From Pseudomonadota bacterium (GTDB lineage Bacteria; Pseudomonadota; Gammaproteobacteria; Burkholderiales; Thiobacillaceae), in the NCBI GenBank assembly GCA_021802945.1, contig JAJZRE010000025.1, forward strand, positions 1,332 to 36,231: a stretch of DNA of 34,900 nt. Reading direction: 5' to 3'. This document shows positions 18,052-23,728 of this stretch, one piece after another. The first letter of the stretch is position 1; each line of letters begins with the position of its first letter. The notes beneath the pieces were generated by a model. That model worked only from the letters and a program-made list of their open reading frames with translations. It searched no databases and was not told the origin of the DNA. The translations under genes and the position numbers were made by a program.

Positions 18052-18079
18052 AAAAAAAACGGGGGGAGGATTTATCCCC
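18052..18079 (-). terminator. Probable terminator overlapping the feoB stop
   Basis: The minus strand reads GGGGA, a seven-base loop, TCCCC, then CCG and eight U; the stem includes the end of the feoB coding sequence. The stem is short, but the U-run is long. A second hairpin, GGGCGC-AAT-GCGCCC, lies at 18022-18036 without a U-run. The remainder of 17943-18051 shows no gene. Confidence 0.5.
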
Positions 18080-19958
18080 AGCCTGCCGCAAGCGCCAGGT
18101 GGTAGGTGATGAACGAAGCCAGGTAGGCCAGCGCGAACAGGTATGCAGCCATGACCAGCGGCATTTTCCAGCCGCCGGTTTCGCGCCTGACGGTGGCGAG
18201 CGTGGCGAGGCACTGCGGGGCGAAGACGAACCAGGCCAGCAGCGCCAGGCCGGTGGCGAGGCTCCAGCTGTGGGCGATGAGCGGGCTGAGTGCGCCGGCG
18301 GTGTCGTTGCCGGTCGCCGACAGGGCATAGACGGTGCCGAGCGCGCTCACCACGACTTCGCGGGCGGCCAGCCCGGGTACCAGGGAGATGCTGATCTGCC
18401 AGTTGAAGCCGATGGGCTCGAACACGACGGCGAGCGCGCGCCCCAGCATGCCGGCGAAGCTGTATTCGATCGGTGCGCCGGTCGCGCCCGCGGGCGGCGC
18501 GGGAAAGCTGGCGAGGAACCACAGCAGGACGGTGAGCGCGAGAATGATGCCGCCGACCCGCTTCATGAAGATCATCACCCGCTGCCAAAGGCCGATGGCG
18601 ATGTTGCGCAGGCGCGGCCAATGGTAGATCGGCAGTTCCATCATCAGCGGGTGCATGAGGTTGCGCGCGGTGAAGCGCTTGATCAGCCAGGCCACGAGCA
18701 GCGCGCCGACGATGCCGGCGACATAGAGGCAGAACAGCACCATGCCCTGCAATTCGAGGCCGCCCCAGATCGTGCGCTGCGGCACGAACGCGCCGATGAG
18801 CAGCGCATACACCGGAAGCCGCGCCGAGCAGGTCATCATCGGGGCGATCATGATGGTGACCAGACGGTCGCGCGTGTTGGTGATGGTGCGCGCGGCCATG
18901 ATGCCGGGAATCGCGCAGGCGAAGCTCGACAGCAGGGGGATGAACGAGCGCCCGGACAGGCCGACGCCGCCCATCAGGCGGTCGAGCAGGAAGGCCGCGC
19001 GGGGCAGGTAGCCGGATTCTTCCAGCATCAGGATGAAGAAGAACAGGATGACGATCTGCGGCAGGAACACGATCACGCCGCCTGCGCCGGCGATCACGCC
19101 GTCGACCACCAGGCTTTGCAGCCAGCCGGGGGGCAGCAGGCCGGCGACGCCGTTGCCCAGCCACTCGGTGGCCGTCTCGATCCAGTTCATCGGCGTCGCG
19201 GCCCAGGCGAACACCGCCTGGAAAATCAGGAAGAGGATCACCGCCAGCAGCGGCGGGCCGGCCAGCGGATGCAGCACCACGCGGTCGATGCGGTCGCTGG
19301 CGAGGTGTGGAATCGCCTTGTCCAGTCCGAGGCCCTGCAGGATCCGCCGCACTGCCTCGTGGTCGGCTTCGATCGTGTCGGCGGGGGGCGCGCCCGCGCC
19401 GATGGGCGCTGTCCGTTTCCAGGTGTCCGGCCGGTCGAGCAGGGTGAGCAGCGCGGCGGCACCGTCGGCATTCACCGCAACGGTGTTGACGACGGGCAGG
19501 TCGAGGGCCGCCGACAAGGCCGCGCCGTCGACCCGGATGCCGCTCTGCGCGGCGAGATCGGTCATGTTGAGCGCTACCACGCAGGGCAGGCCGAGGCGTT
19601 TCACCGCCAGCACCAGGCGCAGGTTGCGCCGCAGGTTGGTGGCGTCGACCACGCACACCACCAGGTCGGGGCGCTTCTCGCCTTCGGCATGGCCGGTCAG
19701 GACGTCGCAGGTCACCTTTTCGTCGGGCGAGCGCGGATTCAGGCTGTAGGTGCCGGGCAGGTCGAGCACGCGCAAATGCTTGCCGGCAGGCGTGACAAGC
19801 TTGCCTTCCTTGCGCTCGACCGTCACCCCGGCGTAGTTGGCGACCTTCTGGTGACTGCCGGTGAGCCGGTTGAACAGCGCGGTCTTGCCGCAATTGGGGT
19901 TGCCCACCAGCGCGAGCAGCGGCCCGCCGCGATGCACATGGACGACGGCCTGCTTCAT
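18072..19958 (-). CDS. feoB: Ferrous iron transporter FeoB
   Basis: This 628-residue inner-membrane Fe(II) transporter has a cytoplasmic N-terminal G domain (GNPNCGKT at 19-26, DLPGTYSL, NMTD), a GDI-like helical segment (about 175-265) and a polytopic membrane region with two gate-like repeats (FACAIPGIMAARTI and the later CLATLATVRRE). It is shorter than the 773-residue E. coli protein, which fits the compact FeoB common in many bacteria; no FeoC follows. Its ATG overlaps the feoA stop (ATGA). It is the last gene of the Fur-controlled hemP-to-feoB operon, and its Fe(II) substrate suggests that the upstream redox genes reduce Fe(III). Confidence 0.97.
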   Translation of the reverse strand: MKQAVVHVHRGGPLLALVGNPNCGKTALFNRLTGSHQKVANYAGVTVERKEGKLVTPAGKHLRVLDLPGTYSLNPRSPDEKVTCDVLTGHAEGEKRPDLVVCVVDATNLRRNLRLVLAVKRLGLPCVVALNMTDLAAQSGIRVDGAALSAALDLPVVNTVAVNADGAAALLTLLDRPDTWKRTAPIGAGAPPADTIEADHEAVRRILQGLGLDKAIPHLASDRIDRVVLHPLAGPPLLAVILFLIFQAVFAWAATPMNWIETATEWLGNGVAGLLPPGWLQSLVVDGVIAGAGGVIVFLPQIVILFFFILMLEESGYLPRAAFLLDRLMGGVGLSGRSFIPLLSSFACAIPGIMAARTITNTRDRLVTIMIAPMMTCSARLPVYALLIGAFVPQRTIWGGLELQGMVLFCLYVAGIVGALLVAWLIKRFTARNLMHPLMMELPIYHWPRLRNIAIGLWQRVMIFMKRVGGIILALTVLLWFLASFPAPPAGATGAPIEYSFAGMLGRALAVVFEPIGFNWQISISLVPGLAAREVVVSALGTVYALSATGNDTAGALSPLIAHSWSLATGLALLAWFVFAPQCLATLATVRRETGGWKMPLVMAAYLFALAYLASFITYHLALAAGWG

Positions 19959-20224
19959 GCCGCTGCCCCGTCTGCCGCCCTGTGCTCGGTCGCCACCTGC
20001 ACGCAGGCCGCCTCGACCCGCCGCAGCGCGAAGGTGGAAGAGCCGATCCGCACCACCAGCGGGTCGCCTCCCGGCAGGGCGCGCGCCATCACCATCACCC
20101 GCTCGCCGGGAAGGAAGCCGATCTCTTCCAGCCACTCGTGCCATTCCGGCGCGTTGGCGGGGGGCGCGACCTGGGTGACGGTGCAGGCCTGTCGGTCGGG
20201 AAGCTGGTCGAGGGTGAGGGTCAT
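19955..20224 (-). CDS. feoA: Ferrous iron transport protein FeoA
   Basis: This 89-residue SH3-like protein is required for FeoB function, probably by contact with its cytoplasmic domain. The segments MTLTLDQLPDRQACTV, EEIGFLPGERVMVMARALPG and GSSTFALRRVEAACV follow the FeoA fold. It overlaps feoB by four bases (ATGA) and overlaps the preceding membrane-protein gene in the same way, so the four 3' genes of the operon, from ApbE on, are all translationally coupled. Confidence 0.95.
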   Translation of the reverse strand: MTLTLDQLPDRQACTVTQVAPPANAPEWHEWLEEIGFLPGERVMVMARALPGGDPLVVRIGSSTFALRRVEAACVQVATEHRAADGAAA

Positions 20225-20748
20225 GAGCGGGCTTTTATACGGGCTGGCGGATTGTACGACGGGGCGACGGCATGACGATGCTGCGGGTGCGGCGGCTGCG
20301 CGATGGCGGGCAGCGCGCGGCGGCGTCCCAGCCGGATGTGCAGCCCGAGCAGGAGCGGCAGCGCGAGCCCGGCGATCCAGTGCAGCAGCGGCAGCCAGGC
20401 GGCGTTGTCGTCGGACGGGAAATAATACAGTGCGTAGCCGGTGCCGGCGAGCCAGACGGTGAGCGCGAGCATGGGCAGGCCGCTGCGGTGGTTCCTGCGG
20501 CGGTTCCAGGCGAGCCGGATGTGGTTGGGCGCGAGCGAGCCGGCGAGTACCAGCGCGGCCATGGCCATCAGCCCGTGCAGCCGCAGCCACCAGGCTTCGA
20601 GCGGGTGCGCTTCGGGGCCGAACGCGCCTTCCGTCCGCAGGAAATAATGAAACGCCAGCCATAGCGCGCCGCTCAGCCAGAGCAGCGCGAATCCGGCATA
20701 GAGCGACTTCTTGTGACGCGGGCCGAGGCGGATGACGGCCTTGCTCAT
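20221..20748 (-). CDS. Four-helix His-rich membrane protein, candidate haem b electron carrier
   Basis: This 175-residue inner-membrane protein has four predicted helices (about 17-37, 52-72, 90-109, 119-139); by the positive-inside rule both ends are cytoplasmic, and the basic loop NHIRLAWNRRRNHRSG faces the cytoplasm. His34, His58 and His123 then fall near the periplasmic face, and His137 and His76 near the cytoplasmic face; His123 and His137 are separated by 13 residues in one helix, as in many di-haem b proteins. No family name is certain; it resembles small cytochrome b561/DUF4405-like proteins linked to flavinylated carriers. It overlaps ApbE upstream and feoA downstream by four bases. 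The His-rich tail (HPQHRH) may bind metal. Electron transfer from quinol to the FMN protein is inference. Confidence 0.7.
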   Translation of the reverse strand: MSKAVIRLGPRHKKSLYAGFALLWLSGALWLAFHYFLRTEGAFGPEAHPLEAWWLRLHGLMAMAALVLAGSLAPNHIRLAWNRRRNHRSGLPMLALTVWLAGTGYALYYFPSDDNAAWLPLLHWIAGLALPLLLGLHIRLGRRRALPAIAQPPHPQHRHAVAPSYNPPARIKARS

Positions 20749-23417: not shown

Positions 23418-23454
23418 GGCATTTCCTTGCTGGGATGAACGGGTGGAAGCAGGC

Positions 23455-23661
23455 TTACTTGGTCAGGATCAGCTTGCCGTTGCGGGTGATGCGCAGGCGG
23501 TAGATTTCACCGTTGTGGTTGATCAGGATTTCCTGGCTTCCCCGGAACAACAGGTCGGCCGGGATGCCGCTCGACGCTGCCTGTTGCCCGGCGCTGAAGG
23601 GTAGGCGGAAGGGGGCGGACGCTCGTGCGGGACTGCCGGGGCGCATGGGGTCGGTGGGCAT
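23455..23661 (-). CDS. hemP: Hemin uptake protein HemP
   Basis: This 68-residue protein carries the complete HemP signature in its second half: [20 protein letters not shown] followed by [14 protein letters not shown]. The N-terminal 30 residues are Pro/Ala-rich and probably disordered. HemP genes are usually Fur-controlled and stand first in iron or haem uptake operons; in Burkholderia a HemP has been reported to promote expression of a haem receptor. No haem receptor is present here. Start choice: ATG at 23661 or at 23646, neither with a good ribosome site. It heads the operon ending in feoB, just after a Fur-overlapped promoter. Confidence 0.9.
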
Positions 23662-23696
23662 GGGTTTCAGCGAATACGCGATTCATTATTGGTATA

Positions 23697-23728
23697 GAGA
23701 ATGATAACGATTCGCATTAAAATGTCAA
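23697..23728 (-). promoter_or_regulatory. Fur-overlapped promoter of the hemP-feoB operon
   Basis: On the minus strand TTGACA (23728-23723), 16 bp, TATCAT (23706-23701). The + strand GAGAATGATAACGATTCGC (23697-23715) matches the Fur 19-mer at 14 positions and covers the -10 and spacer. This is the strongest promoter-operator pair in the window and explains iron control of the whole operon. Confidence 0.85.

What the first reader, a model, noticed from the sequence alone, without database searches (positions are those of the whole stretch)
18072..23728. Fur-controlled operon joining a flavinylated periplasmic redox protein to FeoAB
Eight minus-strand genes run from a Fur-overlapped promoter: hemP, a 68-residue unknown, an outer-membrane barrel, an exported FMN-binding protein with the SGAT motif, ApbE, a four-helix His-rich membrane protein, feoA and feoB. 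From ApbE through feoB every junction is a four-base ATGA overlap, and the FMN-protein/ApbE junction is too, so the proteins are made in fixed ratio. Known: ApbE attaches FMN to SGAT-type motifs; FeoB takes only Fe(II). Inference: electrons pass from quinol through the membrane protein to the FMN protein, which reduces Fe(III) in the periplasm for immediate import. I know of flavinylated carriers as a broad class, but not of this exact unit as a described pathway.
Basis: partly seen in the sequence, partly recalled or inferred. Interest (0 to 1): 0.82.

Follow-up and report, generated by a model that had tools for sequence, protein, structure and literature searches.

The report
Flavin reductase cassette beside iron importer
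This bacterium strings a probable flavin-based electron carrier together with the FeoAB ferrous iron importer under one iron-sensing promoter; the carrier part is a widespread four-gene set whose importer partner is exchanged between close relatives, which suggests a plug-in iron-reducing unit.

Summary
In detail: eight minus-strand genes, a promoter overlapped by a Fur-like site, and 4-base ATGA overlaps from the FMN protein through feoB. But the widely conserved unit is another one: DUF6662 outer-membrane barrel, SGAT FMN protein, ApbE, and a four-helix protein with four invariant histidines. It is complete and in order in 62 of 80 named loci, from proteobacteria to Verrucomicrobia; FeoB is beside it in only 9 of 80. 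In the window's genus (Thiobacillus by record titles) 11 of 13 cassettes sit beside a FeoB, of two different families and in three arrangements. Fur-like sites are enriched upstream of cassettes (14 or more of 19 matches: 21 of 74, controls 5 of 332), mainly in proteobacteria. Best reading: a Fur-controlled periplasmic Fe(III)-reducing cassette plugged into whichever importer is present. Flavinylation, heme, quinol donor and Fe(III) reduction are inferred. Against: most feoAB-bearing relatives lack the cassette, and some plasmid copies lie beside copper oxidases. Unexplained: the cassette's ApbE has no export signal although its substrate appears exported. Partly supported; new variant of published flavinylated electron-transfer systems.

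The parts
23701..23728 (-). promoter-like site TTGACA-16-TATCAT, overlapped by a Fur-like 19-mer at 23703-23721
   Evidence: 11 of 12 promoter matches; Fur-like 14 of 19, consensus recalled
23455..23661 (-). hemP
   Evidence: Pfam PF10636 E 1e-18
23211..23417 (-). 68-aa protein of unknown family
   Evidence: no Pfam or NCBIfam match; relatives beside hemP in other Thiobacillus loci
22189..23136 (-). outer-membrane barrel, DUF6662; first gene of the conserved four-gene cassette
   Evidence: PF20367 E 6.4e-151; AlphaFold2 model with 12 strands, nearest FapF and a COG4313 channel
21632..22177 (-). FMN_bind protein with Sec-like signal peptide
   Evidence: PF04205 E 2e-11; RnfG and NqrC nearest solved kin
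21701..21712 (-). SGAT motif, residues 156-159; T159 is the expected FMN attachment site
   Evidence: A158 and T159 invariant, G157 nearly so, in 36 relatives; attachment itself inferred from the family
20745..21635 (-). ApbE, FAD:protein FMN transferase, without signal peptide
   Evidence: PF02424 E 1.2e-41; for the N terminus
20221..20748 (-). four-helix membrane protein, probable di-heme b-type cytochrome
   Evidence: H58, H76, H123, H137 invariant in 41 relatives; model pLDDT 89.5; fold matches weak
19955..20224 (-). feoA
   Evidence: PF04023 E 3e-14
18072..19958 (-). feoB
   Evidence: TIGR00437 490.8 bits, cut-off 315.65
18063..18079 (-). terminator-like hairpin with T run after feoB (weak)
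   Evidence: not above the shuffled expectation

Best explanation
The window holds a Fur-controlled reductive iron-uptake operon. Its core is a four-gene electron-transfer cassette: an outer-membrane channel (DUF6662), an exported protein carrying FMN on the threonine of SGAT, the ApbE that attaches it, and a four-helix inner-membrane cytochrome with two bis-histidine heme sites. When iron is scarce Fur lets go; the cytochrome takes electrons from the membrane pool (probably quinol) and hands them to the FMN protein, which reduces Fe(III) or a ferric chelate in the periplasm; FeoAB, translated in coupled fashion from the same message, imports the Fe(II). The cassette is a plug-in: in relatives the same genes stand with other importers. 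Shown from sequence: gene content, overlaps, motif, four invariant histidines, conservation of the cassette, exchange of partners, enrichment of Fur-like sites. Inferred: flavinylation, heme, electron donor, Fe(III) as acceptor, one transcript.
For: Cassette complete and in order in 62 of 80 named loci. In the genus 13 of 36 genomes have the FMN protein and 11 of the 13 cassettes lie beside a FeoB: 4 classical FeoAB downstream, 1 divergent FeoB downstream, 6 divergent FeoB upstream; 1 of the remaining 2 is beside an FTR1 permease. FMN-protein tree groups these arrangements separately. 4-base overlaps kept at the four-helix/Feo junction in 7 classical loci and 2 with divergent FeoB. Fur-like score of 14 or more upstream of 21 of 74 cassettes against 5 of 332 control stretches; also 13 of 54 without hemP and outside the Thiobacillus set. 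In G233 the orthologous feoAB is followed instead by PepSY, DUF2271, DUF4198 and ApbE, another flavinylated module. FeoB present in 28 of 38 cassette-positive and 73 of 162 cassette-negative genomes of the order, p=0.002, kinship not corrected. Published precedent for periplasmic reduction followed by FeoAB: PMC10760861 (passages).
Confidence: 0.58

Rival explanations
1. General periplasmic electron-transfer cassette. The four genes feed electrons to various periplasmic or outer-membrane acceptors (iron, copper proteins, peroxidases); the feoAB link in Thiobacillus is mainly shared regulation inside a Fur operon.
For: Outside the genus the cassette has no constant iron-importer neighbour. On plasmids it lies beside multicopper oxidase genes (Methylocystis heyeri) or a cytochrome c peroxidase gene (Ideonella). 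Only 1 of 15 Verrucomicrobia-type loci has a good Fur-like site.
Against: Fur-like sites are enriched also where feoB and hemP are absent. Two FeoB families and an FTR1 permease became neighbours of the cassette within one genus, with conserved 4-base overlaps.
Confidence: 0.22
2. Siderophore-type or outer-membrane route. The cassette releases iron from ferric chelates brought in by TonB receptors, or the barrel and FMN protein together reduce iron at the cell surface, so that the barrel is an active part of the electron path.
For: TonB receptor genes lie upstream or downstream in L092, L093, L094 and L102; a barrel gene starts most cassettes, and some carry a Porin_O_P-type porin instead.
Against: The window operon has no TonB receptor; the modelled barrel is small (12 strands), and no conduit partner was seen. 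TonB, ExbB and ExbD labels are my reading, not family searches.
Confidence: 0.1
3. The FMN domain stays in the cytoplasm, anchored by its N-terminal helix, where the signal-less ApbE can reach it; it then reduces iron or another acceptor inside the cell.
For: ApbE has 20 or fewer residues before its first domain motif in 54 of 54 loci with an assignable start.
Against: The FMN protein begins with a hydrophobic stretch ending at an invariant alanine (A25, 36 relatives), as a cleaved signal peptide would (my reading); its nearest solved kin are the RnfG and NqrC subunits, which act outside the cytoplasm (recalled).
Confidence: 0.05

Closest known systems
Flavinylation-associated gene clusters of Meheust et al. 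2021 (PMC8238504; passages and section 11 seen)
   Same: Exported FMN-binding protein with ApbE and a membrane electron-transfer protein; clusters with ferrous iron transporter VIT1 or FTR1/P19 proposed to reduce iron for uptake.
   Different: Their five membrane classes (NapH, MsrQ, PepSY, DsbD, NQR/RNF-like) are defined by Pfam families that the four-helix protein does not match. The only 'feo' hit in the main text is in the reference list; supplementary tables not seen.
DUF4405 heme cytochromes beside apbE, and FezC (PMC10979944; passages and section 10 seen)
   Same: Membrane protein with four conserved histidines encoded beside apbE, in Proteobacteria among others; heme b shown for one member. 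Nearest class for the four-helix protein.
   Different: Described as six-helix; the window protein has four helices and falls below the DUF4405 cut-off (17.6 against 26.7 bits). Partners named there are a flavinylated flavodoxin and a flavin transporter, not DUF6662 or Feo.
PepSY-type ferric-siderophore reductases with FeoAB: Bradyrhizobium FsrB (PMC10760861), Caulobacter HiuB (PMC13001220), Vibrio VciB (passages only; VciB as cited there and in PMC8238504)
   Same: Inner-membrane heme protein reduces iron in the periplasm and FeoAB imports Fe(II); Fur control for hiuABC.
   Different: No PepSY protein, no FMN_bind carrier and no ApbE in the described operons as far as the passages show; here the electron carrier is an FMN protein.
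Fur-repressed DUF2271/DUF4198/ApbE operon of Caulobacter (PMC3751524; passages)
   Same: A flavinylation operon strongly induced by fur mutation and by iron limitation; a module of this kind follows feoAB in Thiobacillus G233.
   Different: Different flavinylated domain and membrane protein from those of the window.

Membership tests
ApbE-flavinylated FMN_bind proteins (NqrC/RnfG type) | FMN_bind domain above curated cut-off | tested here: met
   44.8 bits against 22
ApbE-flavinylated FMN_bind proteins (NqrC/RnfG type) | SGAT-type attachment motif | tested here: met
   residues 156-159; A158 and T159 invariant in 36 relatives
ApbE-flavinylated FMN_bind proteins (NqrC/RnfG type) | covalent FMN | not testable with these tools
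   needs protein
Canonical periplasmic lipoprotein ApbE | N-terminal signal peptide with lipid anchor | tested here: not met
   11 residues before the first motif in the window; 20 or fewer in 54 of 54 loci with an assignable start, 21 further loci without one
DUF4405 cytochromes | match to PF14358 above cut-off | tested here: not met
   17.6 bits against 26.7 in the window; 8 of 41 family members at E 0.001 or better
DUF4405 cytochromes | four conserved membrane histidines | tested here: met
   H58, H76, H123, H137 invariant in 41 rows
DUF4405 cytochromes | heme binding | not testable with these tools
   needs protein; fold matches to cytochrome b proteins are weak
PepSY-, MsrQ-, NapH-, DsbD-like flavinylation systems (PMC8238504) | membrane protein matching PF03929/PF16357, PF01794, PF12801 or PF02683 | tested here: not met
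   four-helix protein shows none at E 1; none among the families listed for 41 members at E 0.001
FeoAB ferrous iron importer | feoB equivalog cut-off and adjacent FeoA domain | tested here: met
   TIGR00437 490.8 against 315.65 bits; FeoA 53.3 against 23
Fur regulon | Fur site over the promoter | tested here: met
   14 of 19 to the recalled consensus, overlapping the promoter-like site
Fur regulon | Fur binding and derepression at low iron | not testable with these tools
   needs footprinting or transcript data

The most novel reading that the evidence does not exclude
The four genes are a self-contained, envelope-spanning reductase built on flavin instead of c-type cytochromes: inner-membrane di-heme b cytochrome, periplasmic FMN carrier, dedicated outer-membrane channel. 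Made when iron is scarce, it spends little iron on its own electron path, supplies Fe(II) to FeoAB, FTR1 or other importers in turn, and is a candidate for the unidentified reductase of inorganic Fe(III) in bacteria that depend on FeoAB in air. Its carrier would be flavinylated in the cytoplasm before export, a route not known for Sec-exported proteins as far as I can recall.
Probability: 0.25. Interest if true: 0.82.

Novelty: new variant of a known kind. Interest (0 to 1): 0.6.

Why it matters
Many bacteria rely on FeoAB in air, where iron is Fe(III), and the enzyme that makes Fe(II) in the periplasm is often unknown; for Bradyrhizobium a paper says that a different, unknown ferric reductase must reduce inorganic iron (PMC10760861, passages). 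This cassette is a concrete candidate for such a role, with Fur-like sites in many proteobacteria, conserved 4-base overlaps with Feo genes in one genus, and natural exchanges of either the importer or the reductase. PMC8238504 (passages) suggests that flavin carriers could be an advantage where iron is poor; a low-iron-induced flavin carrier would fit. The signal-less ApbE beside an apparently exported substrate raises a separate, testable question: where flavinylation takes place.

Tried and rejected
Phosphate lead: an ABC ATPase cluster near seven cassettes looked like pstB; reading the neighbours showed mixed ABC ATPases, with a real pst operon only in L185. Dropped.

Common neighbour outside the genus: clustering of flanking ORFs in 76 of the 80 named loci (L139-L214) gave, beyond groups of close relatives, only a porin and bfr in a betaproteobacterial subset.

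Class-level search with the four-helix alignment: 14 of 369 genomes, own included, 9 of them at E 1e-26 or better; at most 10 candidates per genome were scored, so this is a lower bound. Its new loci were not analysed further.

The four-helix profile has no relative among solved structures by sequence. The 68-aa protein has no family. A regular expression for SGAT-type motifs found no such ORF around the genome's second ApbE (L227). PepSY kinship of the four-helix protein found no support.

Literature: eight searches of open-licence PMC. DUF6662 occurs in no held paper. In the listings and passages I saw, no paper describes this unit. PMC13274454 (passages) does not mention FMN or ApbE; PMC7376174 (passages) says its strain has no vciB-like reductase.

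Named loci and G genomes overlap (equal contig lengths: L138 and G232, L142 and G200, L143 and G219, L145 and G206, L148 and G211, L144 and G121, L164 and G047, L209 and G164), so the two sets are not independent. Control ORFs are the longest non-overlapping ORFs, not curated genes.
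Full report
What is there. Family searches name hemP, a DUF6662 barrel, an FMN_bind protein with SGAT, ApbE, FeoA and FeoB; the 68-residue gene has no family, and the four-helix protein has only cytochrome b561 and DUF4405 matches below cut-off. Four junctions, from the FMN protein to feoB, are 4-base overlaps. A promoter-like site with 11 of 12 matches precedes hemP and is overlapped by a Fur-like site (14 of 19; consensus recalled). 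A second 11-of-12 site precedes bfd-bfr downstream; between the two units lies a terminator-like hairpin that is no more than shuffles would give. A poorer promoter-like site (9 of 12, 20278-20251) inside the four-helix gene means that separate transcription of feoAB is not excluded.

The organism. The window lies in G000, 87.6% complete. I therefore call the genus Thiobacillus.

How far the unit is conserved. The four-helix protein has a match in 38 of 200 genomes of the order, own included. I fetched all 38 non-own places: 32 have an FMN protein of this kind beside it, 12 a DUF6662-like barrel, 1 a FeoB (L063, about 5.5 kb off), and 6 have no FMN protein. Record titles include beta-, gamma- and alphaproteobacteria, Verrucomicrobia, Opitutia, Bdellovibrio and Omnitrophota. 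FeoB lies on the same strand within 6 kb in 9 of 80; their titles are Thiobacillus, Hydrogenophilales or broader names, and their FMN proteins are 64-80% identical to the window's. Nine plasmids also carry a relative; in the four that I read, an outer-membrane-like or hypothetical gene, FMN-binding protein, FMN transferase and a small hypothetical protein stand in a row. One of the four upstream genes is DUF6662, one a weak BBP2 barrel match, two match nothing. So the old unit is the four-gene cassette, and feoAB is a local addition.

Partner exchange. Among 36 genus genomes (own included), 13 have the FMN protein. Loci read: four have classical feoA-feoB directly downstream (window, L091, L092, L102); one has a divergent FeoB downstream, 43% identical in the GTPase part and 26% in the membrane part, followed by a separate FeoA-domain gene (L093); six have that FeoB family upstream, after hemP (L095, L096, L097, L099, L100, L101); one has FTR1, cupredoxin and a Fer4_5 protein upstream (L098); one has a TonB receptor and a PepSY protein upstream and no importer gene of these kinds (L094). 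TonB receptor, TonB and ExbBD-like genes also lie near others (L092, L093, L102); the TonB and ExbBD labels are my reading. In 9 of 13, window included, bfd-bfr follow. The FMN-protein tree (19 rows) puts the classical-Feo loci, the L093-L094 pair, and the upstream-FeoB loci with L098 in three starred groups (L102 left out for its disrupted FMN gene, L099 because its four-helix gene is off the contig). The 4-base overlap at the four-helix/Feo junction holds in seven loci with classical feoA and two with divergent FeoB.

The other direction. Of 13 genus genomes with classical feoB, 9 have no FMN protein; of 8 with the divergent FeoB, 1 has none (G227). So Feo does not need the cassette. In one of the nine, G233, feoAB is followed by PepSY, DUF2271, DUF4198 and ApbE, another published kind of flavinylated module (L221). 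Exchange on both sides is what one expects if reductase and importer work together, but it is not proof.

Regulation. In 74 of 81 loci (window plus 80; 7 dropped for short upstream sequence) the best Fur-consensus match averaged 12.4 of 19, against 10.5 in 332 upstream stretches of other ORFs from the L139-L214 set. Scores of 14 or more: 21 of 74 against 5 of 332; against shuffles of the same stretches, 29 of 74 reach p 0.05. The 54 cassettes without hemP and outside the Thiobacillus set are also enriched (13 of 54 at 14 or more). Only 1 of 15 loci with Verrucomicrobia, Opitutia or related titles scores 13 or more, so the signal is mainly proteobacterial.

Genome-wide co-occurrence. FeoB_C is found in 28 of 38 genomes with the four-helix match and in 73 of 162 without (Fisher p=0.002; dropping the three weakest matches, 27 of 35 against 74 of 165, p=0.0007). 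Kinship is not corrected.

An anomaly. The cassette's ApbE has no signal peptide. Of 75 loci examined, 54 had an assignable start, all with 20 or fewer residues before the first domain motif; 20 others had no start after the FMN gene but at most 7.3 codons of room; 1 had no recognised motif. The FMN protein looks Sec-exported: a hydrophobic start, an invariant alanine at the expected cleavage site, and no twin arginine in 45 of 46 examined, the exception (L104) not being a cassette protein. A review says that most characterised ApbEs are secreted lipoproteins and that a cytoplasmic one serves a soluble fumarate reductase (PMC12052999, passages). Flavinylation before export, or help from the genome's second ApbE, which looks like a lipoprotein (contig C10; my reading), are open.

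How it most likely works. Low iron relieves Fur; barrel, FMN carrier, ApbE, cytochrome and Feo are made together. Electrons go from the membrane pool through the cytochrome to FMN and on to Fe(III), and FeoB imports Fe(II). The anatomy and the comparisons are shown; the chemistry rests on family knowledge. The main rival is a general periplasmic electron donor, favoured by plasmid copies beside multicopper oxidase genes and a cytochrome c peroxidase gene.

Known and new. Flavinylated carriers near iron transporters are published (PMC8238504: VIT1, FTR1/P19; passages and section 11), as are DUF4405 heme cytochromes beside apbE (PMC10979944, section 10) and periplasmic reduction followed by FeoAB (PMC10760861, passages; proposed in PMC13001220, passages). 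In the listings and passages of the eight searches I saw no description of this four-gene cassette, its FeoAB form, DUF6662, or the signal-less ApbE pairing; supplementary tables, where such clusters could be listed, were not seen. Hence a new variant of a known kind, of fairly high interest because it is widespread and testable.

Noticed in passing
window 20745-21635: The cassette's ApbE has no signal peptide although its SGAT substrate appears to be exported; the same holds in the relatives examined.
   Followed up: partly
window 17051-17938: bfd (17660-17872) and bfr (17051-17530) follow feoB with a promoter-like site of their own, TTGACA-16-TACAAT at 17938-17911, in a stretch that looks Fur-box-like; bfd-bfr follow the cassette in 9 of 13 genus loci.
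   Followed up: partly
L221 623-5669 (genome G233): In a Thiobacillus without the cassette, feoAB is followed by PepSY, DUF2271, DUF4198 and ApbE: a different flavinylated module beside orthologous feoAB.
   Followed up: partly
L102 7091-7532 (genome G218): The FMN gene is disrupted: the two parts of the protein match in overlapping frames and the middle is missing, while barrel, ApbE, four-helix gene and feoAB remain. Real loss or assembly error not decided.
   Followed up: no
L245 4219-8910 (Methylocystis heyeri plasmid): A plasmid copy of FMN protein, ApbE and four-helix protein lies next to multicopper oxidase genes and a ferritin-like gene, which hints at acceptors other than iron.
   Followed up: no
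window 23211-23417: The 68-aa protein beside hemP has relatives beside hemP in other Thiobacillus loci with and without the FMN cassette (L095, L096, L219, L220, L221), so it goes with hemP rather than with the redox genes.
   Followed up: partly
L094 4802-6025; L095-L101; L043, L047, L058-L062: A Porin_O_P-type porin gene follows the cassette in several genus loci and stands just before the FMN gene in more distant ones, as if it could take the place of DUF6662.
   Followed up: partly
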